Origin: Betaproteobacteria bacterium
GTDB lineage: Bacteria > Pseudomonadota > Gammaproteobacteria > Burkholderiales > SG8-41
Length of the DNA: 28,194 nucleotides
Assembly: GCA_025356695.1 (NCBI GenBank)
Contig: JANXSE010000386.1
Span: 1-28,194, forward strand
Direction: 5' to 3'
Shown piece by piece: positions 1,245-18,788 of this stretch. How positions within the stretch are numbered: position 1 is the first letter of the stretch; every line of letters begins with the position of its first letter. The position numbers and the translations under genes were made by a program. The notes under the pieces were generated by a model. That model was not told the origin of the DNA. It saw only the letters and a list, made by a program, of their open reading frames with translations, and ran no database searches.

Positions 1245-2228
1245 TTACGCCACGCGTGGCTCCGCGTCCTGCGGCCACACCGTGACTTTGTCGAGCTCCT
1301 TATTGAGCCCCTTCTCGATCAGTTCGGTCGTGCGCAACTGCCCGGAGTGGCGCGTGTCTTCGTAGCACGGCACGTCCGGGTTGTGATACAGGATGCCGAC
1401 CGGTATCGGATCCGTGCTGGAGGCTATTTCGCGCGCACGGTCGATGTTCAGCGGATCGTGCGTCAGCTGGTTCTTGTAGACCTTGGCGAGCGTCGGACTC
1501 ACCTTGAGGCCGCGCTCGTGATTGAGCAGCAGGATGCGGTTCGGGTCGTGCATCGCCGGATCGTGGATTTTCGGCAGCCATTCGGGGCAGCGCTGCACGA
1601 TGCGCACGAACGACAGCCCCTTGTGATGGTAGGCGGCGGAGAGGATGTCGTAGAGTGCCTCCGGTATCCAGTCAACCGCCTGCGCGACGAACGACACATT
1701 CTGCACACCCAGCGTGACGGTCAGCGGATTGAGCGCGTCGAGGTAGGAGCCCTTCGGCGTCGTGTTGCTCTTGGTGCCGATCGGCGAGGTCGGCGAGGCC
1801 TGCATCTTGGTCAGGCCGTAAATCTGGTTGTCGTGCAGCATCACCGTGATGTTCATGTTGTAACGGATGGCGTGGATCCAGTGCGCCGCACCGATCGAGC
1901 AGCAATCGCCGTCGCCGGTGTTGACGAACACCGTGAGGTCCGGGCGCGCCATCTTGACGCCTTCGGCGATCGGCAGCGCGCGGCCGTGGATGCCGTGAAA
2001 ACCGTAAGTCTTCATGTAGTGCGGGAAACGGCTCGAACAGCCGATGCCCGAGACGAACACGGTCTTCTCCGGACGCAGGTCTTCGTTGCGGCACAGGCGC
2101 TGCACCGCGGTGAGGATCGCGTTGTCGCCGCAGCCCGTGCACCAGCGCGGCACGCCGCTCTGATAGTCCTCGAGCTCGTGGTGCTCCTCGAACATCTGGA
2201 GCAGGCATTCGGTGGCTGCCATGTTCAT
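1245..2228 (-). CDS. korB: 2-oxoacid:ferredoxin oxidoreductase, beta subunit
   Basis: A 327-aa thiamine-diphosphate-binding beta subunit of a 2-oxoacid:acceptor oxidoreductase (OFOR/KGOR type), which decarboxylates 2-oxoacids oxidatively to acyl-CoA and passes electrons to ferredoxin. Visible features are WCTGCG (C30, C33), GIGCSSR (C64) and QRCPEW (C214), matching the four-Cys [4Fe-4S] ligation of OFOR beta subunits. The GDGD (105-108) to HDNQIYGLT (from residue 132) stretch is the ThDP/Mg motif. The start overlaps the korA stop in an ATGA, so translation is probably coupled. Substrate (2-oxoglutarate, pyruvate or other) cannot be fixed from sequence; the kor label reflects overall resemblance to two-subunit KorAB enzymes. 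The cytoplasmic complex would be oxygen-sensitive, in line with the FNR-like box upstream of the operon. Confidence 0.93.
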   Translation of the reverse strand: MNMAATECLLQMFEEHHELEDYQSGVPRWCTGCGDNAILTAVQRLCRNEDLRPEKTVFVSGIGCSSRFPHYMKTYGFHGIHGRALPIAEGVKMARPDLTVFVNTGDGDCCSIGAAHWIHAIRYNMNITVMLHDNQIYGLTKMQASPTSPIGTKSNTTPKGSYLDALNPLTVTLGVQNVSFVAQAVDWIPEALYDILSAAYHHKGLSFVRIVQRCPEWLPKIHDPAMHDPNRILLLNHERGLKVSPTLAKVYKNQLTHDPLNIDRAREIASSTDPIPVGILYHNPDVPCYEDTRHSGQLRTTELIEKGLNKELDKVTVWPQDAEPRVA

Positions 2229-4171
2229 GATTTTTTCGCCTTCCCTTGCTTGGACTTCACGGCCGGTTTGAGCTTGCCGCGGATGAGACCGCAGATGGTG
2301 GACGGTTTGATCGGCGCGCCGCGCACCTCGCTCCAGCAGTCGACATCGACCAGAAAACGCGAACGCAGCAGGATCGCAAGCGCCGAGTAGCGGCGGTTGT
2401 TCTCGTCGATGATCTCGTCGTTCGGATCGTCGGACCAGTTGCCTTCGATCGTCATCACTTTCTTGAAGCGCCGCATCGCCTCGCCGATGCCCGGCGGCAG
2501 CGGCTGCAGGAACCGGAGATGCATCGAAGACACTTTATGGCCTTCGGCGCGCATCAGTTCGACCGCCTCTTCGATCGCGCCCTTGGTGCTGCCCCACCCC
2601 ATGATCAGCAGGTCGCCCGACTGGTCGCCGAACAACGGCGGCGCCTTCAGCGTTTTCTGCAGGGCGGCGAGCTTGAGACTGCGCGCGTGGATGCTTTGTT
2701 CGTTGATGTCGGCGTCGTAGGCGACGTGGCTGGCGCGGTCGTGGGCGAGCCCCGTCAGCGTGTGTTCGCCGCCGGGCTGCCCCGGAATGAAGCGCCGCGC
2801 GAGGCCGGTGGTCTTGTCCCAGTCGTAGGGCAGCGCACCGGGCGGTATCACGCTCTGGTCGATCGGCGGCGCCAGCCACGACTCGCTGAACTGCGGGCGC
2901 GGAAACGGCTGCTGCGAGGTCGCCAGATTGGAATCGGTCAGCACCACCACCACCATGTTGAAGGTCTCGGCGATCTTGCGCGCGGTAATGATGGAGTAGA
3001 AGCAGTCTTCGATCGTGCTCGCCGCCATCACCACTTTGGGCGCGTCGCCGTGACTGCCGAAAATCGCCGTCATCAGGTCACCCTGCTCGGCCTTGGTCGG
3101 CTGTCCCGTGCTGGGACCGCCGCGCTGCACGTTGACGACGACGAGTGGAATCTCGCCCATCACCGCCAGCCCGATCGCCTCCTGCTTCAACGAATAGCCG
3201 GGGCCCGAGGTGATCGTCACCGTGCACTTGCCGGCGTAGGAAGCGCCGATGGCGAAAGCGCAGGCCGAGATCTCGTCTTCGGCCTGGTGCACGATGCCGC
3301 CGATCCGTTCCAGCACATCCGACAGGTAGTGCGAGGCCGAGGTTGCCGGCGTGATCGGATACATCGAGCAGATTTCCATGCCCGAGGCGAGCACGCCGAG
3401 TGCCAGCGCAGTATTGCCATTGACCACGATCTGCGCCTCTTTCGCGCGCGTGGCCGGGATGCTGTATTTGAAATCGAGGTTGACTTCGGCCCAGATGAAA
3501 CCGGCGTCGAGCAATTTGACATTCGAATCGATCACGCTCTGCGCCTTCTTGCCGAAGGTCAGCGCGATCTGCTCGCGCGCGACCTCGAGATCAAGACTGT
3601 AGATGCTGCACAGCATGCCCAACGCGAACATGTTCTTGCCGCGGCGCGCATCGCTGACGAGTGCCAGGCATTCGCGCTCCATCGGGATCTCGTAGACGCG
3701 ATAGCCGGCCTTTTTCAACGCGTCGTGTGTTTCGATGTAGGAAGCGACGATCGCCGGATCGGAATTTTCGCGCCACATGCTCTCGAGCAGGATGATGCAA
3801 TCCGGGCTCAATTCACCGGAGCGCACGCGCCCGAGCAGCACCTGCTCGTTGAATGCCACCACCAAGCTGGTATTGTCGCCGCCGTTGCTGACCGGGCCCG
3901 GGCCGATGCGGATGCGGTTGCCGCTGGCACCCGCGACGCTGCGCGCCGGCGGCCGGATCTCGGCGGGAATGATCTCCACCGTCCAGATACCGTTGCCCAT
4001 TTTTGCCGCGATCGAGCCGAGCGACTGGCCGCAGCGCTGCGCACCCTCGCCGGAATCGCTGATGATCTCGACGATGTGCTCCTTGAGCACCTTGACCGGT
4101 TTGCCTGATTCCGATTTTTTTGCCGGACGGCGGGTCTGCCGCACCGGCTCTTTGAAGGATATGTCGTTCAT
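2225..4171 (-). CDS. korA: 2-oxoacid:ferredoxin oxidoreductase, fused gamma-alpha subunit
   Basis: A 648-aa protein with an N-terminal gamma domain (about residues 30-215, beginning EIISDSGEGAQ) fused to an alpha (pyrimidine-binding) domain from about residue 245, which contains YPITPATSASHYL. Further on are the conserved GPG and RGGPSTGQPTK motifs and a C-terminal transketolase-like domain. The fused gamma-alpha layout is usual for KorA-type enzymes that lack a separate ferredoxin-like delta subunit, so electrons should pass to a soluble ferredoxin. The N-terminal 28 residues are a basic, low-complexity lead and the C-terminus is a Lys-rich tail. The start overlaps the nfnB stop (ATGA at 4171-4168) and the stop overlaps the korB start, so all three are translationally linked. 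The substrate is not determined. Confidence 0.93.
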   Translation of the reverse strand: MNDISFKEPVRQTRRPAKKSESGKPVKVLKEHIVEIISDSGEGAQRCGQSLGSIAAKMGNGIWTVEIIPAEIRPPARSVAGASGNRIRIGPGPVSNGGDNTSLVVAFNEQVLLGRVRSGELSPDCIILLESMWRENSDPAIVASYIETHDALKKAGYRVYEIPMERECLALVSDARRGKNMFALGMLCSIYSLDLEVAREQIALTFGKKAQSVIDSNVKLLDAGFIWAEVNLDFKYSIPATRAKEAQIVVNGNTALALGVLASGMEICSMYPITPATSASHYLSDVLERIGGIVHQAEDEISACAFAIGASYAGKCTVTITSGPGYSLKQEAIGLAVMGEIPLVVVNVQRGGPSTGQPTKAEQGDLMTAIFGSHGDAPKVVMAASTIEDCFYSIITARKIAETFNMVVVVLTDSNLATSQQPFPRPQFSESWLAPPIDQSVIPPGALPYDWDKTTGLARRFIPGQPGGEHTLTGLAHDRASHVAYDADINEQSIHARSLKLAALQKTLKAPPLFGDQSGDLLIMGWGSTKGAIEEAVELMRAEGHKVSSMHLRFLQPLPPGIGEAMRRFKKVMTIEGNWSDDPNDEIIDENNRRYSALAILLRSRFLVDVDCWSEVRGAPIKPSTICGLIRGKLKPAVKSKQGKAKKS

Positions 4172-5688
4172 GATTTTGCCGCCGCCGCGATACGCACGCG
4201 CGCGAAGTTGCGCTCCCTGAGATCGATGCCGAAGAGTTTGTTGCCGGTATCCCTGCCCTCGCCCGCATAGGGCAAATCAGTGTCGCGAATGCCGAGATAG
4301 GCTTTCATGCCGCGCGCCGCGCGCCGCCCCGCGCCCATCGCCTCAATCACGGTCGCCGCCCCCGTGACGATGTCACCGCCGGCGAAGACGCCCGACTCGG
4401 AGGTCACCAGCGTGTCGTCGGCAGCGATGTAGCCCCACTTGTTCAACTTCAGTTGCGAGGTCTGGCCCATGATCGGATTGGCGTTGGTGCCGATCGCGAA
4501 CACCACCAGGTCGGTCTCGAAATCGTGTTCGCTGCCGGCCACCACCACCGGGCGGCGTCGCCCCGAGTCGTCGGGTTCGCCGAGTTCCATGCGCACGCAG
4601 CGCATGCCGCTGACGCCGCCCTTGCCGTCGTCGATGATCGCCACCGGGTTGGTCAGCCAGTGAAATTCGACGCCCTCTTGCTCGGCATGGTGCACCTCCT
4701 CGGTGCGCGCCGGGCATTCGGTGCGCGAACGCCGGTAGATGCAATAGACTTTTTCCGCACCAAGACGAATGCACACACGCATCGCATCCATCGCCGTGTT
4801 GCCCGCACCGATCACCGCCACGCGTTTGCCGATCGGCAGCGGCGTATCGAAGTTCGGAAATTCCTTCGCCCGCATCAGATTGCAGCGCGTCAGCAGTTCG
4901 TTCGCCGAGAGCACCCCGTTGAGCGTATCGCCCGGAATGCCGAGCATGGTCGGATAACCCGCGCCGGTGCCGACGAACACGGCATCAAAGCCCATTTCGT
5001 CCTTCATCTGCTCGATCGTGAAGAGGCGCCCGACCAGCGTATTGCATTCGAACTTGACGCCGAGCTTGCGCAGATTGTTGATCTCGGCATCGATCACCTC
5101 GTTGGGCAGACGGAAGTCCGGAATGCCGTAGCGCAGTACGCCGCCCGGCAGATGGAAGGCCTCGTAGACGGTGACGTCGCAGCCGGCTTTCGCCATGTCG
5201 GCCGCGCAGGCGATGCCGGCGGGGCCCGAGCCGACGATGCCGATCTTGAAATCGTTCGGTTCGATATACGGAATGTTGGCCCAGCCCTCGGCGATGGCGG
5301 TGTCGCCAACAAAGCGTTCAAGCCGGCCGATGGCGACCGGCTCCAGCGACTCGCCAACGGTACAGACGCCTTCGCACTGGTTTTCCTGCGGACACACACG
5401 TCCGCAAATCGCCGGCAGCAGATTGGTGTCGGCGATGACGTCGTAGGCGCCGCGGAAATCCTTCTCCGTCATTTTCTGGATGAAAGCCGGAATGTTGATG
5501 CCGACCGGACAGCCGTCAACGCAGGGCTGCTCGGGACACATCAGACAGCGCTCGGACTCCTTCAGCGCGTCTTCCAGACGGAAGCCGCAGGCGACTTCGG
5601 AAAAATTTTTCGCGCGCTCCTGCGGATCCTGCTCACGCATCGGGGTGCGCTGTTGCGGAATGGTACGAATGGTTTTTTTCTTGGCCAT
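4168..5688 (-). CDS. nfnB: Nfn/GltD-like FAD, NAD(P) and Fe-S oxidoreductase large subunit
   Basis: A 506-aa member of the glutamate synthase small subunit/NfnB (SudA) family. The N-terminal ferredoxin-like segment has two Cys sets: C48, C51, C56, C60 (CLMCPEQPCVDGC) and C95, C99, C105, C109. An FAD-binding VGSGPAG follows at 152-158, and a second Rossmann motif, VIGAGNTAMDA, lies farther on. In NfnAB complexes this subunit carries the [4Fe-4S] clusters and the bifurcating FAD and works with NADP(H) and ferredoxin. The next gene upstream is its NfnA-like partner and the next two encode a ferredoxin-reducing 2-oxoacid oxidoreductase, so an Nfn role is favoured over glutamate synthesis; no gltB large subunit is present. 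Electron bifurcation itself is inferred from the family. Confidence 0.88.
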   Translation of the reverse strand: MAKKKTIRTIPQQRTPMREQDPQERAKNFSEVACGFRLEDALKESERCLMCPEQPCVDGCPVGINIPAFIQKMTEKDFRGAYDVIADTNLLPAICGRVCPQENQCEGVCTVGESLEPVAIGRLERFVGDTAIAEGWANIPYIEPNDFKIGIVGSGPAGIACAADMAKAGCDVTVYEAFHLPGGVLRYGIPDFRLPNEVIDAEINNLRKLGVKFECNTLVGRLFTIEQMKDEMGFDAVFVGTGAGYPTMLGIPGDTLNGVLSANELLTRCNLMRAKEFPNFDTPLPIGKRVAVIGAGNTAMDAMRVCIRLGAEKVYCIYRRSRTECPARTEEVHHAEQEGVEFHWLTNPVAIIDDGKGGVSGMRCVRMELGEPDDSGRRRPVVVAGSEHDFETDLVVFAIGTNANPIMGQTSQLKLNKWGYIAADDTLVTSESGVFAGGDIVTGAATVIEAMGAGRRAARGMKAYLGIRDTDLPYAGEGRDTGNKLFGIDLRERNFARVRIAAAAKS

Positions 5689-5777
5689 GTCATCACTTTC
5701 TTGCCGGCGATGCCGATTACGGAAGCCCTACTGCAAATCTCGCCGGCTACACTGCGACCGCCGGCATACTCGTCAAG

Positions 5778-6731
5778 TCAACCGCCGCCGACGTCTTCAA
5801 ACGGATCGGGCAGGCCCGGGCTCTCGACCGGCAGTTCCGCCATCGCGGCGAGCGCCTCCGCCAGCGAAGGCTCGGCATGAATTTCATTGCGCATGCGACA
5901 GGTCGCCGACCAGCGCTGCAGGGCGGCTTTTTCTTCCGGCACAAACCGCTTGAGGCGCGTCATCAGATCTTCAAAATCGACCTTGTGTCCGTCGAAGTCG
6001 GGGCCGTCAACGCAGGCGAACTTGATTTCGTCACCGAGCTTGACGCGACAACCGCCGCACATGCCGGTGCCGTCCACCATCAGCGGATTCAGACTGACGA
6101 TGGTCTTGATGTTGTGCGGGCGTGTGGCTTCGGCACAGCCGCGCATCATGATCGGCGGCCCGATGGCGACGAACTCGTCGATGTCAGGGTGTTTTGCAAT
6201 CGCCTGTTTGATGCCTTCGGTGATCATGCCTTTGATGCCGGCCGAACCGTCGTCTGTGCAGACGATGAATTCGTCGCAATAATTTTTGAACTTGTCTTCC
6301 CAGAACATCAGCTTCTTGTTGCGAAAGCCGACGATGCCGATGACGTAGGCGCCGGCTTCCTTGAAGGCACGCGCATGCGGAAAAATCGGCGCCACACCGA
6401 GGCCGCCGCCGACGCAGGCGACCTTCTTCACTTTGTCGATATGGCTGGGGATACCCATCGGGCCGGTCACCGCATACAAACTGGTGCCGACCTTGCAGTC
6501 CTGCTGCATTTCGCGAGTGGTCTTGCCGACTGCCTGGATCACCAGTGTGATGGTGCCCTTCTGGCGGTTGAAATCGGCGATGGTGAGTGGAATGCGTTCG
6601 CCGTGTTCGGTCGACATCACAATGACAAACTGCCCGGCGCGGGCCGCTTTTGCCATCAACGGATGGTGTACCTCAAGCAGGTACGTCACATCCGAAAAAT
6701 CCTCGCGCGCAACGATCGCGAAATTGGACAT
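5778..6731 (-). CDS. nfnA: NfnA/SudB-like ferredoxin-NAD(P) reductase small subunit
   Basis: A 317-aa FAD/NAD-binding protein of the dihydroorotate dehydrogenase electron-transfer/NfnA family. The flavin motif is RIPLTI (46-51), the pyridine-nucleotide motif is GGGLGVAP (108-115), and the [2Fe-2S] segment is DGTGMCGGC with D220, C225, C228 and then C240 in FACVDGP. The one-Asp, three-Cys spacing resembles the unusual cluster ligation described for Nfn small subunits. About 40 residues beyond the usual end form a Glu/Pro-rich tail. A GAGGGG ribosome-binding site precedes ATG 6731. It is the first gene of the operon, 89 bp upstream of nfnB. Together NfnAB would exchange electrons among NADH, NADPH and ferredoxin in the cytoplasm; direction in vivo is not determined. 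Confidence 0.88.
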   Translation of the reverse strand: MSNFAIVAREDFSDVTYLLEVHHPLMAKAARAGQFVIVMSTEHGERIPLTIADFNRQKGTITLVIQAVGKTTREMQQDCKVGTSLYAVTGPMGIPSHIDKVKKVACVGGGLGVAPIFPHARAFKEAGAYVIGIVGFRNKKLMFWEDKFKNYCDEFIVCTDDGSAGIKGMITEGIKQAIAKHPDIDEFVAIGPPIMMRGCAEATRPHNIKTIVSLNPLMVDGTGMCGGCRVKLGDEIKFACVDGPDFDGHKVDFEDLMTRLKRFVPEEKAALQRWSATCRMRNEIHAEPSLAEALAAMAELPVESPGLPDPFEDVGGG

Positions 6732-6929: not shown

Positions 6930-7988
6930 TCAGGGCTTGATTTCGCGTGTCGCCGCAAACGAATTGCCGAAACAGGGCACATACACCGAATGCGTACCGG
7001 GCCCGCCCGCCACCATGATGCAGATTTCTTCGGGCCTGGTGGAAATCGGCAGCATCGTGTCATGGTTGATGGTGCCGAGTTCGGCGCTGCGCGAATCGAG
7101 CACACGCTGCAGGTCGCGGCCGGACATCAGGCCGGCACGCATCTTCGAGGCCTCCCACAGGCGGCACTTCAACTCCGCTTTGCTGACACCGCCACGCTGC
7201 AGAATGTCGGCGTGTTCGGGGCCGATCATGAGCCACGGTTCGCCGCCGTGCGTATATTCATTGCTCGGCGGGTGGATCATGGTCTGGGCAAACACATGCA
7301 CGAGCTCGGCGGCGTCCTTGCTATGCGAGTTCATGTTCATGGTGCCCTCGGCGCCGACCACGGTCACAGTGCTCGCCGATTTTGCGAAGCCGCGCTCGAC
7401 GTGCAGCGCCTCCCAAGGCGAGTCGTCTTCGTTTTCGGCGCAGCAGAAGCTGTACTTGCCGGGCTGGCCTTGCGTCGCGCGGTCCATTTCGCCGGGCAGC
7501 GCGCCGCCGACGTTGCGCAATATCAGACGCAGCGCACGGCCGAGGGTGGCGTTGGCCCACGCACCCTCGCCGATGCAATTGAAGGTCGCATTGACCTCCA
7601 GCGTTTTGGCGACGGGCCCGTTGATGATGATCCAGATCGCCACCGGGTTGGTGGTCGCCTGGATCGCCTGCAGATTGAAAGCGGTGTCGGCACAGGCCTC
7701 GACCGCCGCGATCAGCGCCGGCAGATACGCCGGCTCGCAGCCGGCCATCACTGCGTTAATGGCGATGTTCTCGACCGTCGCATTGGCGAATCCCGGCGCC
7801 AGCACGGCGATGACCTCATTGCGTTTGCGCGTTGTACCTTCGAGCATGCGCGCGACGCGTTCCTGCGTCGGCGGCACGATCGGCAGGCCATCGCTCCATT
7901 TGCGTTCGCGATAGAGCCGGTTGATGGCGTCGAGATCGTCGGGCGCCTCGATCAATTGCGCCGCGCTGGCTGGACTCATTGTGCTCAT
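6930..7988 (-). CDS. Conserved uncharacterised partner of the UGSC selenoprotein
   Basis: A 352-aa soluble protein without a signal peptide or membrane segments. Its ATG (7988) overlaps the TGA stop of the selenoprotein gene (ATGA at 7988-7985), so the two are almost certainly co-translated; a second in-frame ATG lies three codons on. Recognisable conserved-looking segments are KWSDGLPIVPPT (30-41), INGPVAKTL (122-130), ANATLGRALRLILRNVGG (145-162), PGKYSFCCAENE (176-187) and WEALHVERGF (192-201). Eight Cys residues (84, 99, 138, 182, 183, 275, 323, 339) include the adjacent pair 182-183. I recall proteins of this kind beside UGSC-type genes but know no assigned reaction. A two-subunit redox enzyme with the selenoprotein is inference from gene coupling only. 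Confidence 0.85.
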   Translation of the reverse strand: MSTMSPASAAQLIEAPDDLDAINRLYRERKWSDGLPIVPPTQERVARMLEGTTRKRNEVIAVLAPGFANATVENIAINAVMAGCEPAYLPALIAAVEACADTAFNLQAIQATTNPVAIWIIINGPVAKTLEVNATFNCIGEGAWANATLGRALRLILRNVGGALPGEMDRATQGQPGKYSFCCAENEDDSPWEALHVERGFAKSASTVTVVGAEGTMNMNSHSKDAAELVHVFAQTMIHPPSNEYTHGGEPWLMIGPEHADILQRGGVSKAELKCRLWEASKMRAGLMSGRDLQRVLDSRSAELGTINHDTMLPISTRPEEICIMVAGGPGTHSVYVPCFGNSFAATREIKP

Positions 7989-8527
7989 CTCACTTGCTGT
8001 CCGGTGGCAAGCTGCACCACCTCATCGACACAGGCAGCGGCGAGTGTGCGCACTTCGTCGCGCGTGCGCGCGCCGAACGGATGCGCGATCACCGCGATCG
8101 GCAGCCCAGCGTGACCGAGTGCCCGCGCCTGCGCGCGGCCCAGCGTCAGGAAGGCGCTCGAACAGATGGCGACCGCGGCGCGGCCGCGTTTGACGATTTC
8201 CACACTGTCGTGGACACTCCACGACGAGCATGACCCTCAATCACCGGACCCGGTGATCACCAGGTCGCATTGCTCCGCCAGTTCCCTGTAAACCGCATCG
8301 TCGGCTGGCACCGAGGCCGCGCGCTTCTTGCGCTTGATGATTTTCACCACACCGTGGCGCGCGGTCAGCAGTTCCGCCAGATCATCGACCAGATGGTCGA
8401 AGTTGGGTTTGGCATTGTCGATAAAACCGACCACCTTGCCCTTGAGGCCGGCCAGCGTCTGGCCGGCCGTCTCGGCGCCACTGCTGCGCACCGCGGTCGG
8501 GTTGTACAACAGGATTGAAGCAGTCAT
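7985..8527 (-). CDS. UGSC-motif selenoprotein (Sec97 encoded by in-frame TGA)
   Basis: Reading through the TGA at 8239-8237 gives a 180-aa protein starting at ATG 8527, with GGAG 8 nt upstream. The residues round the TGA are ITGSGD-U-GSCSSWSVHD, so Sec97 and C100 form a UxxC redox pair. This matches the family known as UGSC (seleno)protein, named for this motif. The frame is continuous on both sides: residues 1-96 include NAKPNFDHLVDDLAELL, and residues 98-180 run to the TGA at 7987-7985. A perfect 7-bp hairpin 11 nt after the TGA fits a bacterial SECIS. A conventional call would give a truncated 96-aa protein plus a spurious 72-aa ORF. The substrate is unknown; the UxxC suggests thiol/selenol redox chemistry. 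Expression needs SelA, SelB, SelD and tRNA-Sec elsewhere in the genome. Confidence 0.9.
8207..8225 (-). promoter_or_regulatory. SECIS-like stem-loop for Sec insertion
   Basis: On the coding (minus) strand GTCGTGG-AGTGT-CCACGAC forms a perfect 7-bp stem with a 5-nt loop. The loop begins 18 nt after the TGA and has G as its second base. Both agree with the general rule for bacterial SECIS elements: a short hairpin inside the coding region, with the apical loop roughly 16-37 nt after UGA and a G among the first two loop bases. Confidence 0.8.
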
Positions 8528-8589
8528 CGCATTCTCCGTGCGGCCGCGCGGGCAGCCCTGAATGATCGCATCGTCGCGGTCAGGGCCTG

Positions 8590-8595: not shown

Positions 8596-8603
8596 GCAAG
8601 TGA

Positions 8604-8609
8604 TAGAAT
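8604..8609 (+). promoter_or_regulatory. Extended -10 promoter of the SDR-GST operon
   Basis: TGA-TAGAAT is an extended -10 element 23 bp before the SDR start, with only a weak -35. GGGGAGA at 8621-8627 is the ribosome-binding site. The leader would be short. Confidence 0.5.
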
Positions 8610-8632
8610 CGCCGCGCATCGGGGAGAACACA

Positions 8633-9367
8633 ATGGACACCGGACTCAAAGGGAAAACCGTGCTGATCACGGGCGCGAGCCGCAACATGGGGCGCGTCGC
8701 GGCGCTCGCCTTCGCCGCCGAAGGCGCCAATCTGGCGATCTGCACGAGTGCGCGCATGACCGAACTCAATGCCGTCGCCGACAAGGCGCGCAAGCTCGGC
8801 GTCAAGGTCGTCGCTGAAAAATGCGATGTCACCGATGGTGAGGCGGTCAAAGCCTTCATCGCGAAAACGCGCGCGGAACTGGGCGGCGTCGATGTCGCCA
8901 TCAATCTCGCCGGCAACCGCCACGAGGTGAAGTTTCTCGAACAGACGCTCAAGGGCTGGCACGATAACATCGCCGTCAACCTGACCGGTCCCTTCCATAT
9001 CTGCCAGCAGGTAATCCCGCTAATGATGGAAAAGAAACACGGCCGCATCATCAATATCGCGGGGGTTACGCCCTACATCGGCGGGCCACCGGCAAAATCG
9101 ATGGTCAAGCTCGGCATCGTTGGCCTCACGCGCGGACTTGCGCGCGAATTCGCGCCTTACAACATCACCGCCAATTGCATCGGCCCCGGCGGTGTAACGC
9201 GGCTCGACCTCGATCCGGACGAGCACAACAAGGCGCTGCGCCCGGGGCAGACGCGCATGGGCACCGCCGAAGAAATCGTGTCGCTGATGATTTATCTCGC
9301 CAGCGACAAAGCCGGCTATATCACCGGCCAGTGTTATCTCGCCAACGGCGGCAGATATTTTCAATAG
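8633..9367 (+). CDS. SDR-family Rossmann protein with degenerate active site
   Basis: A 244-aa short-chain dehydrogenase/reductase fold. It has the cofactor motif TGASRNMG (13-20), CDVTD (64-68), NLAG (91-94) and N116 in the NIAVNLTG segment, and it ends in the usual TGQCYLANGG. The catalytic region departs from the family. K159 aligns with the active-site Lys of YxxxK, but the Tyr position is K155 (KSMVK), and the Ser position falls on A143/G144 in NIAG. It may therefore be a non-canonical dehydrogenase, an isomerase- or hydratase-like SDR, or an NAD-binding regulatory protein. Y148 is close by and could substitute. The start is ATG 8633 because GGGGAGA precedes it; a GTG at 8600 would extend it by 11 codons into the promoter. 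It is followed after 35 bp by the GST gene. Confidence 0.9.
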   Translation: MDTGLKGKTVLITGASRNMGRVAALAFAAEGANLAICTSARMTELNAVADKARKLGVKVVAEKCDVTDGEAVKAFIAKTRAELGGVDVAINLAGNRHEVKFLEQTLKGWHDNIAVNLTGPFHICQQVIPLMMEKKHGRIINIAGVTPYIGGPPAKSMVKLGIVGLTRGLAREFAPYNITANCIGPGGVTRLDLDPDEHNKALRPGQTRMGTAEEIVSLMIYLASDKAGYITGQCYLANGGRYFQ

Positions 9368-9402
9368 TCACCGGCAACACCTATCAACCTGAGGGGGTTT
9401 TC

Positions 9403-10032
9403 ATGCTTACGCTTTATTTCAGTCCCGGCGCCTGTTCGACGGCGTCGCACATCGGCATCGAAGAAACCGGCGTCGCCTACACCGAACGGCCGATCCTGAT
9501 TTCAAAAGGCGAACAGAAGACCGCCGAATATGCAAAGGTGAATCCGCGCGGCAAGGTGCCGGCACTCGACGTCGACGGCCGCGTCATTACCGAGAACACC
9601 GCCATTTTGAGTTATCTCGGCCGCCGCTTTCCGGAGTCCGGCCTGCTGCCGGCAGACCCGATCGATGAAGCCCACTGCATCGGTGCCATGGCGTGGTTTT
9701 CGAACATCGTGCATCCGTCGTATCAGCGTTACATGCGCGCCGAGCGCTTTGCCGAGGGCGATGCCGCAATCGCCAGCGTCAAGGAGATGGGCAAAAAAAC
9801 GTTCTGGGCGAACCTCGAAGAAATCGATTCACTGCTCACCGGCAGGCAGTGGTGCGTCGGCGACAAATTCAGCGCCGCCGACGCCTACGCGATTGTGTTC
9901 TACGGCTGGGGCCTGCGTGCCGAGCTGCCGCTGGCCACGCTCGCCAATTTCACGGCGCTCAAGGACCGCATGTTGAAGCGCCCCAAGGTGATGAAGGTGT
10001 TGCAAAGCGAACAGAGCGTGCTGGTGAAATAA
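9403..10032 (+). CDS. Glutathione S-transferase family protein (beta-class-like)
   Basis: A 209-aa protein with an N-terminal thioredoxin-like domain (1-80) and an all-helical C-terminal domain. SPGACSTASHIG (7-18) puts a Cys at position 11, as in bacterial beta-class GSTs. NPRGKVPAL has the cis-Pro glutathione-binding turn and ENTAILSYL is the following gamma-glutamyl-binding loop and helix. Length is usual for the family. The start is ATG 9403 with GAGGGGG upstream; the longer frame from 9175 overlaps the SDR gene and is rejected. It is co-transcribed with the SDR gene, and a strong terminator follows 19 bp after the stop. It probably works on electrophilic intermediates or in glutathione-dependent chemistry; the substrate is not visible. 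Confidence 0.93.
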   Translation: MLTLYFSPGACSTASHIGIEETGVAYTERPILISKGEQKTAEYAKVNPRGKVPALDVDGRVITENTAILSYLGRRFPESGLLPADPIDEAHCIGAMAWFSNIVHPSYQRYMRAERFAEGDAAIASVKEMGKKTFWANLEEIDSLLTGRQWCVGDKFSAADAYAIVFYGWGLRAELPLATLANFTALKDRMLKRPKVMKVLQSEQSVLVK

Positions 10033-10050
10033 CGCGGACCTGCGCGAGAC

Positions 10051-10079
10051 AAAACGGGGAGCCTGTGGCTCCCCGTTTT
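10051..10079. terminator. Bidirectional intrinsic terminator
   Basis: AAAACGGGGAGCC, a TGT loop and GGCTCCCCGTTTT form a 13-bp perfect stem with A and T runs at the outer ends, and three more T follow on the plus strand. It lies between the convergent GST (plus) and NHL (minus) genes and can stop transcription from both sides. Confidence 0.93.
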
Positions 10080-10102
10080 TTTGTAACCGCAATCGAATGC
10101 GA

Positions 10103-11098
10103 CTACTTGCGGATAAACTTCCGCACCGTCATGCCGCCGGTCTCGGCCATGTAGATATTGCCGGCCGCGTCAGCCGCCACGCCTTCGCCAACACTGAACG
10201 ACTCGGGATCGGCACCGAGCCCTGGAATGAACGACTTCACCACGCCGTCACGCGCGCTGCCGATGTGAATGCCGCGCTTGATCCCCGGGTTGAGCTTGGC
10301 GTTCGACTGGTGGTCGGCGACGTAGAGCGTGTCGTTGCCATCAATGAAGATGCCGCTGGGCCGGCCGAACTGCTTCCACTCGGCAATGAATTTTCCGTCC
10401 TGGTCGAAAATCTGCACGCGGTTGTTGGAACGGTCGGCGACAAACAAGCGGCCCTGCGAATCAAACGCCAGACCGTGCGGCGTGTCAAATTCGCCGGGCG
10501 CGCTGCCCTTCTTGCCCCAGGTCTTGATGAACTTGCCGTCCTTGCTGAATTTGACGATGCGTGCGTTCGAATCGCCGCCGTGGCCGTCGGCAACGAAAAT
10601 GTCGCCATTGGGCGCAACAATCACGTCCGAGGGTTGATTGAACGTGTCGTCCGAGGCTCCAGCGACGCCGGGCTTGCCGAGCGTCATCAGGACTTTGCCG
10701 TCGGCGCTGAATTTGACGACAACGTGGCCCTTGTTGCCCTTGCCCTGCTGGTCGGTCACCCAGACGTTGCCCTCGCGATCGACCGCAATGCCGTGCGGCA
10801 CGACAAAGATGCCGGCACCGAAGGTTTTCAGAAATTTTCCCGACGCATCGAGTTGCACCACCGGCGGCACGTTGTTGTCGGCGCAGCCGTTGCCGCCACA
10901 GCGTTCAGCAACCCAGACATGGCCGTTGCGATCAACATCCACCGCCCCGGTTGAGCCCCAGTGGCGGTTATCGGGCAGTTTCGCCCAGCCGTCTTCGACG
11001 AACGGATTAGGCGGATCCGCCGGCGCCGCCGCCAGCACCGGCGTCAATGCAAACGTCGCCAGCAAAATTACCGATAATCCGCGAAATAGCTTGCCCAT
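10103..11098 (-). CDS. Exported NHL-repeat beta-propeller protein
   Basis: A 331-aa protein with a signal peptide (MGKLFRG, a hydrophobic core, then VLAAAPA at about 20-27). Repeated blades follow, of the form PxGIAVDxxGNVWVTD, PSDVIVAPNGDIFVADG, PHGLAFDSQGRLFVADR and PSGIFIDGNDTLYVADH. These are NHL or six-bladed-propeller repeats as in SMP-30/TolB-like and peptidyl-alpha-hydroxyglycine lyase relatives. Cys residues in ERCGGNGCADN near residue 70 could form a disulfide in the periplasm. GGGGGA precedes ATG 11098. No enzymatic activity can be assigned; such proteins bind ligands or act as lactonase-like enzymes. It stands alone, between a terminator and a promoter shared with the hemerythrin region. 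Confidence 0.88.
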   Translation of the reverse strand: MGKLFRGLSVILLATFALTPVLAAAPADPPNPFVEDGWAKLPDNRHWGSTGAVDVDRNGHVWVAERCGGNGCADNNVPPVVQLDASGKFLKTFGAGIFVVPHGIAVDREGNVWVTDQQGKGNKGHVVVKFSADGKVLMTLGKPGVAGASDDTFNQPSDVIVAPNGDIFVADGHGGDSNARIVKFSKDGKFIKTWGKKGSAPGEFDTPHGLAFDSQGRLFVADRSNNRVQIFDQDGKFIAEWKQFGRPSGIFIDGNDTLYVADHQSNAKLNPGIKRGIHIGSARDGVVKSFIPGLGADPESFSVGEGVAADAAGNIYMAETGGMTVRKFIRK

Positions 11099-11163
11099 GG
11101 TCTGTCCCCCGAGATGAAATGGCGTCCGTGCGGCGCCCGCCGCCGGATCACTTGTTTTTTGCC

Positions 11164-11192
11164 AGCTTCCGCCTCAGCCGTTCCGCCGTCAA
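11164..11192 (-). promoter_or_regulatory. Shared TTGACG-N17-GAAGCT element upstream of the NHL gene
   Basis: On the minus strand TTGACG (11192-11187) is followed after exactly 17 bp by GAAGCT (11169-11164), then TGGCAAAAAA. The same arrangement occurs before the second MBL gene and the second Bug gene. The TTGACG is a good -35. The GAAGCT is a poor sigma-70 -10, so another sigma factor or an activator may be involved. Confidence 0.5.
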
Positions 11193-11200
11193 GCCGGAAT

Positions 11201-11214
11201 TTGACCCAAATCAA
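11201..11214 (+). promoter_or_regulatory. FNR/ANR/DNR box of the hemerythrin gene
   Basis: TTGACCCAAATCAA matches TTGAT-N4-ATCAA at 9 of 10 positions. AATAAT at 11236-11241 is a good -10, and a start near 11249 puts the box centre at about -41.5, the class II activator position. Confidence 0.75.
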
Positions 11215-11280
11215 TACCGCCGGAACGGCACGGCGAATAATGACTCCAGCGCGCAGAGGTTCCTGCGCAGTGGAGACCCC

Positions 11281-11853
11281 ATGAAAACGGCAGATGCAGT
11301 CCGGTTGTGGCATGACGAGCACGCGCGGTTTGCGCAACTGCTCGATTTTCTCGACACACAGATGCTGGTCTTTCACGAAGGCGGGCATCCGAATTACGAA
11401 CTGATGCGCGACGTCATCCATTACCTGCAACATTATGCCGACCGCTACCACCATCCGCGCGAAGACGTTGCCTTTGAATTGTTGCTCAAACGCGAACCGG
11501 CACTGGCGCCGCAGATCAAACGCCTGATGCACGAGCACCGCGTCATCAATACCGTCAGCGCGAAGCTCTACAAATATCTGGAAGACATTCTCGAAGACGC
11601 CTTCATCGCGCGCGAAACAGTCGAGGCGGTGGCGGCGACTTATCTGGTCTATTACCGCAGCCACATCGCATCGGAGGAATCCGACATTCTGCCGCAGGCG
11701 GCGCAACTGATGACGGAGGCCGACTGGGCGCAGGTCGCGGCGGCGATCCCGTCGACGCCGGACCCGCTGTTCGGCAAGGAAGTCGGCGCGCGCTATCGCG
11801 ACCTGCACGCGCAAGTCGCGCTCGAAATGCGGGCCGGCGCCGAAAACGCCTGA
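11281..11853 (+). CDS. Hemerythrin-like HHE-domain protein
   Basis: A 190-aa helical protein of the hemerythrin HHE cation-binding family. Candidate di-iron ligands are H11/H14 (WHDEH), H57, H58 and E61 (HHPRED), H84 and H86 (MHEH), and the H and E of RSHIASEES in the fourth helix. The first 150 residues form the four-helix bundle. Such proteins bind O2 or handle NO and iron in the cytoplasm. GGAGA at 11272-11276 precedes ATG 11281. An FNR-type box and -10 upstream point to induction at low oxygen or by NO. It is monocistronic and convergent with the cupin gene 8 bp after its stop. Confidence 0.92.
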   Translation: MKTADAVRLWHDEHARFAQLLDFLDTQMLVFHEGGHPNYELMRDVIHYLQHYADRYHHPREDVAFELLLKREPALAPQIKRLMHEHRVINTVSAKLYKYLEDILEDAFIARETVEAVAATYLVYYRSHIASEESDILPQAAQLMTEADWAQVAAAIPSTPDPLFGKEVGARYRDLHAQVALEMRAGAENA

Positions 11854-11861
11854 GCCGCGGT

Positions 11862-12452
11862 TCAGGGCTCCTTGCCGTCCATCAGAATAAAGGCAATGCG
11901 GCAGACCTCCTTGCCGCGGTTCACCCAGGCGTGGTTGGTCGCCTGCTGTACCACCACGTCACCGGCCTTGAGATGCACCTCGCCGTCGTCGAGCAGCATG
12001 TCGATTTCGCCGGACATGATGATGGCGTAATCGAGGCTACGCGTGCGGTGCATCATCGGATGCCGCACCGGCACGCCCTTGGCCGGCGCGTGATCGCCCA
12101 CCACTTTCATCATGGTGTTGACGTCCATCTTTTCGACTTCCGCTTTCATCGGCGGAAAATCCACGATACGGAAAATCGTGCCATTGGCCGGCGGAATCAG
12201 GCCAACCTTGGTCTTCGCGCGATCTTCGGTCGATGAATAGTCGGGCGGATACTGGCTGGTAACCCACATTTCACCGGCCGGGTTCGGCGAGCGCAGCGAA
12301 GTCAGCGCGACCGGGCCGTCGGCCAGCGCGATGGCGCGGCCGTTGGCATCAAGTGCGGTGACGACGCGGCGCACTTCCGGCGCCTTGTTTTGAGCGAATG
12401 CCGATGTTGTCGCGATCAACACCAGTGCCATTACCGTGAGCAGTATTTTCAT
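11862..12452 (-). CDS. Exported cupin-domain protein
   Basis: A 196-aa protein with a clear signal peptide (MKILLTVMALVLIATTSAFA, cleavage before QNK). A C-terminal cupin domain has motif 1 around MHRTRSLDYAIIMSGEIDML and motif 2 in LKAGDVVVQQATNHAWVN. The start is ATG 12452, chosen because GGGGAGG lies just upstream; a longer frame to 12533 has no ribosome-binding site. The pattern resembles small periplasmic cupins of Burkholderiales, often beside catabolic genes. A bound metal is plausible but the substrate is unknown. Confidence 0.88.
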   Translation of the reverse strand: MKILLTVMALVLIATTSAFAQNKAPEVRRVVTALDANGRAIALADGPVALTSLRSPNPAGEMWVTSQYPPDYSSTEDRAKTKVGLIPPANGTIFRIVDFPPMKAEVEKMDVNTMMKVVGDHAPAKGVPVRHPMMHRTRSLDYAIIMSGEIDMLLDDGEVHLKAGDVVVQQATNHAWVNRGKEVCRIAFILMDGKEP

Positions 12453-12543
12453 GACGCCTCCCCTTTTTGTAGTTATAAGCCATCCAGAATTTTCTCCCTC
12501 ACCCCGCAATAGAAGGAGAAGGGGACCCGCCAACCACGACTAA

Positions 12544-13581
12544 TCAGTAGCAGCCACCCGCCATGCAGGTACCGCTGCCATCGAACTCCAGCGTCCTGCC
12601 ACTGATGCCGAGGTAAACGGGGCGGCCCTTGACCTGGTCGATGAACGCCTTGGTATAGGTGTTCGGCCGCAGCACGCCGCCTGCAGTCGCCGCTTCGTTG
12701 ACGTGCGAGACGATCACCGACGCCGGCCGCAGCAGCTCGTTGATCGCGAACGCCGCAGAATCCGGCAGGATCGCCGCGAGGCCGAGGTTCATCAGCACGA
12801 GATTGGGCTGGTGAAACGCGCGGATCACCGTCTGCATCTCACCGTGAATGCCGGTGTCGCCCGACAGGTAGGCGCGCAGGCCGTTGCTGAACTTCAACAC
12901 ATAACCGATCGGCGGATCGAGGCTGACGTTGAGGTTGTCGGGTGCGACGCCTTTCTGCTGCGCATCGGTCAAGAGGTCGCGCGCCACCCGTGCGTCGTGC
13001 GAGGCAAATACCGCAGTGATCTCGACACCGCGCGCCGCCCCCGCCGCCTTGATGATGCGCGTGCCGCCCAGATGAATCGAGGCCAGACAGGGTGCAGACT
13101 GTACCGCGGCGATAGTGACGCCATCCATGGCGCACGCAGGCGTCGGCTTGCCGCGGATGTTTTCGATCTTCTTGCCGAGGAAGGCTGTCGTGCTGGCGAT
13201 CATCACCAGCGCCGAATTTTTCGCCGCCGCGATTTCAGCAGTGGTTGAATTGGGTGCGGCCGACACCGTTTCGGGCTTGTCGCAGCTGCCGGTATTGTTC
13301 AACGCCGCAAGCTTGCGGTCACCCATATGGTCGCCGTGGGCGTGACTGAGCAGCACTGCATGCACGGTGCCGAGCCGCGGATCGTTCGCGCCCATCACCG
13401 TCTGCCCGGCATCGTACAGAATGCGCACGCCGGTCGGATCTTCGAAGATAGTGGCGCGATCGCGGTCGCACAACTCACCCGCCTGCGAACCGAGCGGTGT
13501 GATCTTGACGTTTTGCGCCCATGCAGACGCACCAAGCAACGACAGTAGCAACAGTCCCGCTACAAATTTTTTCGAGTTCAC
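12544..13581 (-). CDS. Exported metallo-beta-lactamase-fold hydrolase, copy 1
   Basis: A 345-aa MBL-fold protein with signal peptide (MNSKKF, hydrophobic core, ASAWA). The metal motif is SHAHGDH (79-85), later ligands are in ASHDARV and SGDTGIHGEM, and SHVNEA supplies a terminal His. The GTG at 13581 is favoured as start because GGGGGGA lies 6 nt upstream and it yields a clean signal peptide; ATG 13599 would add six residues (MAGGII) ahead of it. It is a tandem paralogue of the next gene upstream (87 bp away), with most of the sequence alignable without gaps and nearly identical tails ending CMAGGCY. It is probably a periplasmic zinc hydrolase; the substrate is unknown. Confidence 0.9.
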   Translation of the reverse strand: MNSKKFVAGLLLLSLLGASAWAQNVKITPLGSQAGELCDRDRATIFEDPTGVRILYDAGQTVMGANDPRLGTVHAVLLSHAHGDHMGDRKLAALNNTGSCDKPETVSAAPNSTTAEIAAAKNSALVMIASTTAFLGKKIENIRGKPTPACAMDGVTIAAVQSAPCLASIHLGGTRIIKAAGAARGVEITAVFASHDARVARDLLTDAQQKGVAPDNLNVSLDPPIGYVLKFSNGLRAYLSGDTGIHGEMQTVIRAFHQPNLVLMNLGLAAILPDSAAFAINELLRPASVIVSHVNEAATAGGVLRPNTYTKAFIDQVKGRPVYLGISGRTLEFDGSGTCMAGGCY

Positions 13582-13668
13582 GATGATCCCCCCAGCCATT
13601 CACTTCGATTGATCCCGCCTGCAGGTTCAGTCGCAGGGTGAACAACTTTGTTGCCCCCTGCCGTCCCA

Positions 13669-14709
13669 CTAATAACAGCCGCCGGCCATGCAACTGCCAC
13701 TGCCATCAAACTCCAGCGTCCGGCCGCTGATGCCGAGATAGACCGGCCGGCCCTTGACCTGGTCGATGAAGGCCTTCGCCCGCGTGTCCGCGCGAATGAC
13801 ACCGCCGCTCGTCACGCCCTCGTTCGGATGCGACAGAATCACCGACGCCGGACGCACCAGTTCGTTGATCGCATAGGCCGCCGCATCGGACTGGATGGCA
13901 TTGGTGCCCATATTGATCACGGCAAGATTGGCGCGATGGAATTCGCGCACGACGGTGCGCATTTCGCTGTGCAGTCCGGTGTCGCCCGTGAGGTAAACGC
14001 GCAGGCCGTTGGTGAATTTGACGACGTAACCGCTGGGCGCGCCGAGCGTGACGCTGATGTTGTCGGCCTCGAGCGATTTCTTCTGCGCATCGGTCAGCAG
14101 ATCGCGCGTCAGCGTGCTGTCATGCGACGCGTAGACGGTGATGATTTCAACACCGTTCGCCGCACCGGCCGCCTTGACGATTTTGCTGCCGCCCAGTTCC
14201 ACCGGCGCCAGACAGGGTGCCGCCTGCACGGCGGCGATCGCACCGCCCGGCTCTGCGCAGTTGCCGGTCGGCTTACCGCGGATGTTTTCAATCTTCTTGC
14301 CGAGGAAGAAGGCCATGTTGCGGATCATGATCAGCGACGCGTTTTTCGCCGCGGCAATTTCCGCAGTGGTCGAATTCGGCAGCGCGGAAACGGTCTCCGG
14401 CTTGTCGCAGGTCCCCATGTTGAGTCCAGCGATCTTGCGGTCGCCGATGTGGTCGGTATGCGCATGGCTCAGCAACACCACGTGCACGGTGCCGAGACGC
14501 GGATCATTGGCGCCCATCACCGACTGGCCGGCGTCATAAAGAATGCGTACGCCGGTCGGATCTTCGAAAATCATCGCGCGGTCGCGGTCGCACAACTCGC
14601 CCGGATGCGTGCCGAGCGGCGTGATCTTCACATTCTGCGCCGACGCTGCCGCGCCGATCGCCGTCAATGCAAGCGCGAACACTCCCAATGCAATACGTTT
14701 TGCTTTCAT
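13669..14709 (-). CDS. Exported metallo-beta-lactamase-fold hydrolase, copy 2
   Basis: A 346-aa paralogue of the neighbouring MBL protein, with signal peptide (MKAKRI, hydrophobic core, AAASA), SHAHTDH (81-87) and the later TGDTGLHSEM and SHPNEG. The mature N-terminus QNVKITPLG and the tail FDGSGSCMAGGCY are almost the same in both copies, so the duplication is clear. The central part around residues 110-170 varies more. GGGGGAG precedes ATG 14709. A TTGACG-N17-GAAGCT element lies upstream, and copy 1 is probably read from the same promoter. Confidence 0.92.
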   Translation of the reverse strand: MKAKRIALGVFALALTAIGAAASAQNVKITPLGTHPGELCDRDRAMIFEDPTGVRILYDAGQSVMGANDPRLGTVHVVLLSHAHTDHIGDRKIAGLNMGTCDKPETVSALPNSTTAEIAAAKNASLIMIRNMAFFLGKKIENIRGKPTGNCAEPGGAIAAVQAAPCLAPVELGGSKIVKAAGAANGVEIITVYASHDSTLTRDLLTDAQKKSLEADNISVTLGAPSGYVVKFTNGLRVYLTGDTGLHSEMRTVVREFHRANLAVINMGTNAIQSDAAAYAINELVRPASVILSHPNEGVTSGGVIRADTRAKAFIDQVKGRPVYLGISGRTLEFDGSGSCMAGGCY

Positions 14710-14779
14710 GCAGAACTCCCCCGAATTAGATCTTCAATGACAATTGCGCCGCGAACCGGCCACAGTTTGATTTTTTTGC

Positions 14780-14808
14780 AGCTTCCGCCTCATCGATGAC
14801 CGCGTCAA
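14780..14808 (-). promoter_or_regulatory. Shared TTGACG-N17-GAAGCT element upstream of MBL copy 2
   Basis: TTGACG (14808-14803), 17 bp, GAAGCT (14785-14780), then GCAAAAAAA on the minus strand. GATGAGGCGGAAGCTG here is almost the same as GCTGAGGCGGAAGCTG before the NHL gene. Confidence 0.5.
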
Positions 14809-14821
14809 GCGCAGCCGCCGC

Positions 14822-15793: not shown

Positions 15794-15862
15794 GAAGAAA
15801 GCCCTGGATCGAAAAGGTGTCAAACGCTAACGCGTGACGGGTGGCGGCGTCAATACGCGCCG

Positions 15863-16174
15863 TCAAATCGGGATTTGCACATCGAGCAACGGCGCATGCT
15901 GCTGCGCGCCATAGACATCGGTGTCACCCACCGCGCCGGAGGGAATGCGCCGCTCGATGGTGGCCTTCCAGGCAAACGCCGGCGGATATTCGGTAAACAC
16001 CACCGCCGATTCGGCCACGTTATAGAGCTTTGCAATCAACGCAGCGGTGATGACACTGGTGGCGCGCACCTGTTCGAAGGTGGCGGCATCGCCGAACATG
16101 ATGTCGAGTGTCAACTCGAAGGGGCCGGCGTTCTTGCTCTTGCACGCTTTCGCGATGTCACCGAGTCTCTTCAT
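15863..16174 (-). CDS. AtuA-like small (ferredoxin-fold) protein
   Basis: A 103-aa protein matching the C-terminal AtuA-like ferredoxin-fold domain that in many proteins is fused to the DUF1446/AtuA large domain. It includes RSGAVGDTDVYG-like IPSGAVGDTDVYGAQQ near the end. The ATG (16174) comes one base after the stop of the large AtuA-like gene, so the two are a split form of one functional unit. A longer frame to 16270 overlaps the large gene and is rejected. Function follows the large subunit and is not known in detail. Confidence 0.85.
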   Translation of the reverse strand: MKRLGDIAKACKSKNAGPFELTLDIMFGDAATFEQVRATSVITAALIAKLYNVAESAVVFTEYPPAFAWKATIERRIPSGAVGDTDVYGAQQHAPLLDVQIPI

Positions 16175-16175
16175 A

Positions 16176-17537: not shown

Positions 17538-17568
17538 GCGAACTCCGCCGTTACGCAAACGTCGTGCA

Positions 17569-18657: not shown

Positions 18658-18696
18658 GTGTTGCTCCTCGTTTACGTTGAAAGCGGAAAGACTGCG

Positions 18697-18725
18697 ATGT
18701 TATTGGAAGCGGCCGTCCAATACAA
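18697..18725 (-). promoter_or_regulatory. Promoter with overlapping inverted repeat before the amidohydrolase
   Basis: TTGTAT (18725-18720), 17 bp and TAACAT (18702-18697) make a fair sigma-70 promoter 40 bp before the gene. ATTGGA-N8-TCCAAT (18702-18721) is an inverted repeat inside it, extended outward by TGT/ACA. That position suits a repressor or LysR/GntR-type operator. Confidence 0.4.
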
Positions 18726-18788
18726 CGGCGCGGGCCCTGCCGTCACGAATGCGCGACAGTACCTTGTTCCCGGCAGGGGGCGCCGGTA

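What the first reader, a model, noticed from the sequence alone, without database searches (positions are those of the whole stretch)
7985..8527. UGSC selenoprotein hidden by an in-frame TGA
Seen: the frame from 8527 is open to TGA 8239-8237 and stays open for 83 more codons after it. The flanking residues GD-U-GSC reproduce the motif that names the UGSC family, with Sec97 and C100 as a UxxC pair. Known: UGSC is a rare, functionally uncharacterised prokaryotic selenoprotein family. Inference: this is a genuine selenoprotein rather than a pseudogene, because the motif, frame continuity and hairpin all agree. Routine annotation would miss it or split it.
Basis: partly seen in the sequence, partly recalled or inferred. 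Interest (0 to 1): 0.9.

Follow-up and report, generated by a model that had tools for sequence, protein, structure and literature searches.

The report
A UGSC selenoprotein with obligate partner
The apparent stop codon in this bacterial gene most likely codes for selenocysteine, the gene forms a pair with its uncharacterised neighbour, and some relatives of this bacterium carry dozens of such selenium genes, hinting at an unrecognised class of selenium enzymes.

Summary
Frame 8527-7985(-) is a UGSC-family gene (PF24696; NF041046 over its cut-off) whose TGA 8239-8237 is read as selenocysteine. In the window and relatives, 148 of 148 distinct UGSC domains that cover the codon have TGA there, with conserved protein after it. 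Two homologues read elsewhere have Cys. The hairpin behind TGA exceeds a synonymous-codon null. SelB and tRNA-Sec were each over cut-off in 18 of 20 relatives' genomes. No genome is held for the window. The family is known since 2008: a new member of a known kind.

The less expected part lies around it. UGSC is half of a unit: a 352-aa partner without a Pfam domain adjoins it in 143 of 146 testable distinct cases (77 fused, 45 downstream, 21 upstream). Its Sec domain resembles the C-terminal Sec domain of glycine reductase protein B (GrdB). Copy number is extreme: 58 matches, 51 with TGA as only stop, in one 5.7-Mb draft relative. TctC solute-binding genes lie nearer to it than other genes do. 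I infer a substrate-specific two-part selenium reductase or lyase (about 0.4 likely).

The parts
7985..8527 (-). UGSC-family selenoprotein gene, 180 aa with Sec97 (first in-frame TGA) and C100
8237..8239 (-). TGA read as selenocysteine
   Evidence: TGA in 148 of 148 distinct covering domains, window included; Cys in L160 and L161
8207..8225 (-). core of the bacterial SECIS hairpin (8-bp stem, GUG loop), within a longer hairpin of about 8200-8233
   Evidence: all 8 pairs kept in 42 of 42 distinct close sequences; codon bias beyond the protein
6930..7988 (-). partner gene, 352 aa, no Pfam or NCBIfam family; its ATG overlaps the UGSC stop (ATGA), so translational coupling is likely
   Evidence: pairing; model pLDDT 93.9
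8534..8537 (-). GGAG, likely ribosome-binding site of the UGSC gene
   Evidence: sequence
5778..6731 (-). NfnA-like FAD/NAD-binding subunit; neighbour, not a conserved partner
   Evidence: found in 2 of 5 close homologous loci
4168..5688 (-). NfnB/GltA-like oxidoreductase; neighbour
1245..4171 (-). 2-oxoacid:ferredoxin oxidoreductase genes (two ORFs, 2225-4171 and 1245-2228); neighbours

Best explanation
Supported by sequence (about 0.97): the gene is a functional UGSC selenoprotein gene; a SECIS hairpin right behind TGA 8239-8237 directs Sec into position 97, giving a 180-aa protein with a Sec-x-x-Cys site. Seen in relatives as fusion or adjacency, inferred here from the ATGA overlap (about 0.93): UGSC is one half of a two-part protein whose other half is the 352-aa product of 6930-7988. 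Inferred (about 0.4): the unit is a substrate-specific Sec-dependent reductase or lyase that works like protein B of glycine reductase. Sec97, at the start of a helix in a flavodoxin-like domain, attacks a carbon of a small organic substrate held by the partner, a leaving group departs, and the C-Se bond is resolved with C100 and an outside thiol. Many diverged copies, often near a TctC binding protein, would each serve another imported substrate. The confidence below is for the first two steps together; the chemistry is 0.4.
For: Family and frame. Codon: 172 UGSC domains in 158 loci and the window, 151 distinct; 148 distinct ones cover the codon and all have TGA there, the other 3 are cut by the end of their stretch. 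In the 169 uncollapsed rows the motif ends GSC 133, GAC 22, GGC 14, so C100 is constant. The search words do not include the Sec codon. Natural Cys homologues L160 and L161. SECIS: 147 genes (144 by a stricter collapse), mean z -1.78 against synonymous codons, 75 of 147 in the best 5%, against 15 and 18 of 147 and 11 of 145 in three control stretches; where +7 is Ser the codon is AGT in 125 of 125 (123 of 123 collapsed) against 5% elsewhere; the apical loop nearest the usual distance starts 22 nt behind the U of UGA in 115 of 147 and has G in its first two bases in 136 of 147. Machinery. Across 60 genomes near G009, SelB is in 7 of 8 with UGSC and 13 of 52 without (p 0.0013). Pair: of 151 distinct domains 5 lie too near a stretch end; of the other 146, 77 have the partner fused, 45 within 600 nt downstream, 21 directly upstream on the same strand, 3 none in reach. 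GrdB likeness: hhalign probability 75.8, E 2.3e-5, Sec on Sec; with the Sec column masked the same 94 columns align, score 34.9 against at most 23.3 in 150 column-permuted controls. TctC: in the 79 long loci and the window, 94 of 174 TctC but 182 of 623 other genes lie within 1.5 kb of the unit; shuffling labels within loci gives 73.2 on average and never 94 in 5000.
Against: No genome is held for the window, so its own Sec machinery is untested. G002 and G018 lack a tRNA-Sec over cut-off, and G002 and G013 a SelB over cut-off (G013 has pieces at contig ends); G078 has one TGA copy but no SelB; these are drafts. Some genome rows have no TGA (4 of 58 in G017, 2 of 40 in G007, 2 of 26 in G012, 5 of 35 in G013); many are fragments or weak, three without TGA were read, one of them, L159, with a degenerate motif; 3 rows of G017 and 1 of G007 have a further TAA or TAG, so some copies are broken. 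The GrdB probability falls to 34.6 with Sec masked, and the short GrdB-like family gives only 1.2. The partner shows no likeness to GrdB, and no solved structure matches either model at E <= 0.001. The nearest TctC in the window is about 6 kb away. In G009 there is no TctC excess within 500 bases (2 of 19 against 1.3 expected) and a moderate one within 3 kb (8 of 19 against 3.9). Of four genomes from other phyla looked at, two (L077 with L080, L078) have a transporter gene at the unit and two (L067, L071) do not.
Confidence: 0.92

Rival explanations
1. UGSC is a general thiol-selenol oxidoreductase (thioredoxin- or peroxiredoxin-like, as the 2008 survey supposed) that reduces peroxides or disulfides; the partner is its docking or regulatory domain.
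For: Sec-x-x-Cys is a classic redox motif (recalled); [quoted passage not shown]
Against: The model of a fused homologue (L008, pLDDT 91) is a five-stranded alternating beta-alpha domain; the fold matches listed include receiver domains, Rossmann proteins and lumazine synthases. Dozens of diverged copies near TctC genes suit substrate specificity better than a general antioxidant.
Confidence: 0.25
2. A selenoprotein of the two-part unit, but not an enzyme: a Sec-based sensor or regulator of uptake genes.
For: Nearness to TctC genes; a cluster of 9 flanking genes whose scanned representative is a LysR regulator, 6 of them within 1.5 kb.
Against: No DNA-binding or signalling family in either half; scanned representatives of other neighbour clusters are catabolic enzymes such as MmgE/PrpD, CoA-transferase and amidohydrolase.
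Confidence: 0.15
3. The frame is a pseudogene or a genuine stop, and the 83 codons after it are untranslated.
For: TGA is a stop by default, and the window's Sec machinery is unseen.
Against: dN/dS 0.02-0.13 after the codon; TGA in 148 of 148 distinct domains, and the three copies without TGA that were read have Cys (two) or a degenerate motif (one), not another stop; hairpin beyond synonymous expectation.
Confidence: 0.02
4. The extreme copy numbers are artefacts of mixed or redundant draft genomes.
For: The genomes are draft MAGs of many contigs, and some rows are fragments or two pieces of one gene.
Against: The 22 distinct G017 copies held in loci have a median nearest-copy identity of 60% and none at 95% or more (assignment of seven of the loci L039-L061 to G017 by shared contig prefix); G017 shows one SelB over cut-off and one strong tRNA-Sec; many other genomes also hold ten or more matches.
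Confidence: 0.1

Closest known systems
UGSC-containing selenoprotein family (NF041046, PF24696; PMC2398784)
   Same: Same domain, Sec-x-x-Cys motif, over both curated cut-offs, SECIS behind TGA; that paper already reports a fusion to a conserved domain 'Unknown_1' (passage only, supplement not read), which may be this partner.
   Different: The passages seen give no function and suppose a Trx-like fold; a 2016 table lists 26 and 33 for it, which I take as organisms and genes (PMC5029168, passage). Here it is a two-part unit in up to 51 TGA-only copies per draft genome.
Glycine/sarcosine/betaine reductase protein B, GrdB (PF07355), and its fluoroacetate relative FarB (PMC10838667)
   Same: Sec domain with a similar motif, aligned Sec on Sec over 94 columns; a substrate-specific, often multi-copy Sec subunit with a second subunit (PMC10838667, abstract and passages).
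   Different: UGSC lacks the GrdB N-terminal part; the partner does not resemble GrdB, and GrdE (PF09338) is in only 2 of 11 UGSC genomes searched.
Short GrdB-like selenoproteins in the same genomes (16 loci among L112-L129, motif mostly U-P-N-C, once U-P-R-C)
   Same: Also have a TGA followed by further protein, and share the genomes.
   Different: Profile comparison with UGSC gives probability 1.2 only.

Membership tests
UGSC selenoprotein family | Full-length match over curated cut-off | tested here: met
   PF24696 166.8 bits (cut-off 25), NF041046 127.5 (cut-off 125)
UGSC selenoprotein family | UGSC motif with in-frame TGA and conserved Cys at +3 | tested here: met
UGSC selenoprotein family | SECIS hairpin directly behind TGA | tested here: met
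UGSC selenoprotein family | Sec machinery in the same genome | tested here: inconclusive
   SelB and tRNA-Sec present in relatives; no genome held for the window
UGSC selenoprotein family | Selenium in the purified protein | not testable with these tools
   needs 75Se labelling or mass spectrometry
GrdB (glycine reductase protein B) | Homologous C-terminal Sec domain | tested here: inconclusive
   hhalign 75.8, 34.6 with Sec masked, score above 150 permuted controls; no GrdB chain found in PDB with profile A3
GrdB (glycine reductase protein B) | PF07355 N-terminal domain | tested here: not met
   No PF07355 match in the window's UGSC or partner or in 79 partner sequences at E <= 1
GrdB (glycine reductase protein B) | Partner subunit GrdE (PF09338) | tested here: not met
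   No PF09338 match in the window's partner; PF09338 in 2 of 11 UGSC genomes
Thioredoxin fold | Thioredoxin arrangement of strands and helices | tested here: inconclusive
   Model of a fused homologue is alternating beta-alpha, Sec after the third strand; fold lists are capped

The most novel reading that the evidence does not exclude
UGSC-partner units are a large unrecognised class of substrate-specific selenoenzymes, distant kin of glycine reductase protein B, that cleave carbon-heteroatom bonds of many imported organic acids. In TctC-rich betaproteobacteria they have multiplied to some fifty Sec genes per genome, so that most of these bacteria's selenium goes into a catabolic arsenal and not into antioxidant defence.
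Probability: 0.3. Interest if true: 0.88.

Novelty: new member of a known kind. Interest (0 to 1): 0.58.

Why it matters
UGSC has been listed since 2008 without a function in the passages I saw. Its partner gene, its likeness to GrdB and its nearness to binding proteins turn that into a direct experiment: test the pair against the ligand of the neighbouring binding protein. The copy number would also change the picture of where selenium is used: the largest bacterial selenoproteomes named in a 2026 review hold 57 and 63 genes of all families together (PMC13188914, passage), while one draft relative here shows 51 matches of this family alone with TGA as only stop (counted twice by eye).

Tried and rejected

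Corrected on recount: loci partly repeat places and are short, so the first counts (169 of 169; 142 of 166 with a partner downstream; 108 of 188 TctC against 229 of 670) hold duplicates or a length bias. One search repeats them on distinct genes and long loci. The 24 domains first counted as partnerless turned out to have the partner upstream in 21 cases. The conclusions did not change; of the odds only that for the pair step rose slightly.

Literature: UGSC with selenoprotein, 8 papers listed, passages with the word seen in all 8; family accessions; selenoproteome size, TctC, Betaproteobacteria and UAG variants; GrdB and D-proline reductase (listing; PMC10838667 abstract and passages). In these listings and passages I saw no word of this expansion or of a UGSC-GrdB link; the 2026 groundwater study behind the figure of 63 is not held.

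Full report
What was checked. The frame 8527-7985 on the minus strand is as described: 96 codons, TGA at 8239-8237, 83 codons, TGA. Read through, it matches PF24696 over residues 8-175 and passes the NF041046 cut-off; the part before TGA alone does not pass the latter, so a caller that stops there would lose the gene or truncate it.

Is TGA read as Sec? A scan of GTDB genomes found 89 relatives, kept 80 and gave 79 loci. Of 97 aligned places, the window included, 96 cover codon 97 and all 96 have TGA; the other, in L076, begins behind it. With HMMs over 158 loci and the window there are 172 UGSC domains, 151 of them distinct: 148 distinct ones cover the codon and have exactly one stop, TGA; 3 are cut by the end of their stretch. 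Whole-genome searches do list some copies without TGA (4 of 58 in G017, 2 of 40 in G007, 2 of 26 in G012, 5 of 35 in G013; two more strong ones). I read three: L160 (GDCGTS) and L161 (SDCGSC) have Cys at the place, L159 has a degenerate motif. Selection after the codon is purifying against five close homologues, dN/dS 0.02-0.13.

The SECIS. In 147 genes the 45 nt from TGA fold better than synonymous versions (mean z -1.78; 75 in the best 5%), control stretches much less so (15 and 18 of 147, 11 of 145). In 42 distinct close sequences all eight pairs of the stem are kept, and the codons are fixed beyond the protein: where +7 is Ser the codon is AGT in 125 of 125 (background 0.05), Ser +5 is TCG in 125 of 129, His +9 CAC in 111 of 115; collapsed to 144 genes, AGT is 123 of 123. 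The stem shows almost no covariation; the evidence is synonymous constraint. The two Cys copies do not keep this hairpin.

Machinery. No genome is held for the window. In 20 relatives' genomes tRNA-Sec was found at 74-81 bits in 18 (the search also rings in all 14 controls, over the cut-off in 5, so only these strong hits count) and SelB over cut-off in 18. Among 60 genomes near G009, itself included, UGSC is over cut-off in 8, SelB in 20, both in 7 (Fisher p 0.0013). The exception, G078, has a TGA copy without SelB. selA and selD were not searched.

The unit. The next gene, 6930-7988, overlaps the UGSC stop as ATGA and has no Pfam or NCBIfam family; 79 partner sequences, the window's among them, gave only scattered weak matches in Pfam. 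Of 151 distinct UGSC domains 5 lie too near a stretch end; of 146, 77 have the partner in the same open frame, 45 in a separate frame within 600 nt downstream, 21 directly upstream on the same strand, and 3 (L064, L081, L137) none in reach, all three near a stretch end. A search of 5.8 billion proteins scored 7,998 candidates and kept 7,937 relatives of the partner; in the 120 listed, the only names given were hypothetical protein. A fused homologue (L008) models well (pLDDT 91), the window's partner too (93.9). UGSC is an alternating beta-alpha domain with Sec between the third strand and its helix.

Kinship to GrdB. Profile comparison with six GrdB proteins from G005 and G017 aligns Sec on Sec over 94 columns (probability 75.8, E 2.3e-5 for one pair). 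With the Sec column masked the same 94 columns align (score 34.9, probability 34.6); 150 column-permuted controls reach at most 23.3, the reversed alignment 16.5, the partner alignment 13.0. The short GrdB-like family gives only 1.2. I take this as fair, not conclusive, evidence. In fluoroacetate respiration a GrdB-like protein is predicted to attack a C-F bond with its Sec (PMC10838667, abstract and passages), which shows the range supposed for such a nucleophile.

Copy number. In 25 genomes behind the loci there are 1 to 58 matches each. These genomes were chosen because they hold UGSC; among 60 genomes near G009 only 9 have any match (8 over cut-off), yet six of those have 6 to 26. In G017 I counted by eye, twice, 58 rows: 54 with TGA, 51 of them with TGA as only stop and 3 with a further stop, and 4 without TGA; a few rows are fragments or pieces of one gene. 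In G009 19 of 19 have TGA. The copies are diverged: in 22 genes of G017 the median nearest identity is 60%, none at 95%.

Neighbours. With crude ORF calls in the 79 long loci and the window, TctC genes (one BLAST cluster that holds the window's two Pfam-confirmed TctC genes) make up 77 of 199 genes within 1 kb of a unit and 3 to 20% in most bins farther out; 94 of 174 TctC but 182 of 623 other genes lie within 1.5 kb, and within-locus shuffling never reaches 94 in 5000 (mean 73.2). TctC is very common in these genomes: G009 gave 386 candidates, of which 150 were scored and listed; using those, 8 of 19 UGSC genes have one within 3 kb against 3.9 expected (40 of 2,000 shuffles reach it; contig lengths approximated), with no excess within 500 bases. 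Of four genomes of other phyla, two have an MFS or ABC transporter gene at the unit (L077 with L080, and L078) and two have not (L067, L071). In the window itself the nearest TctC lies about 6 kb away.

Verdict. The partner, the GrdB likeness and the copy number are what a specialist would not expect, and they give a testable proposal for its function that I did not meet in the listings and passages seen.

Noticed in passing
L110-L131 (22 PF07355 matches): All 22 GrdB-family frames that one search found in these genomes run into a TGA with further protein after it (U-G-T/S or U-P-N/R-C), so they look like further selenoproteins; the matches to PF07355 end just before the Sec.
   Followed up: partly
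window 1245-6731 and L001 3290-8761: NfnA-NfnB-POR proteins are 98-99% identical between the window and L001, but the UGSC protein beside them is 90% and L001 has a TctC gene upstream where the window has an SDR gene: the cassette or its flank was probably exchanged.
   Followed up: partly
window 8600-19919: SDR, GST, NHL, metallo-beta-lactamase-fold, TctC, AtuA and amidohydrolase genes keep their company in L002 and L003.
   Followed up: no
L004, L010, L011, L020, L047, L063, L069, L074; L001, L044, L064: Record titles name Bordetella parapertussis or Chitinophaga pinensis for drafts whose UGSC loci group with environmental betaproteobacteria; the labels are probably wrong.
   Followed up: no
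G009: 386 first-look TctC candidates in a 6.2-Mb genome; 150 were scored and all of those listed pass the cut-off.
   Followed up: no
L082-L095, L105-L109, L148 and others: In 21 distinct cases the partner gene comes before the UGSC gene instead of after it; many of these are the best PF24696 match of their genome and may form a subfamily.
   Followed up: partly
L159 (G017:C76:15700-19000): A fused UGSC-partner protein whose Sec motif has degenerated while the partner half is kept; the partner may act alone in some copies.
   Followed up: partly
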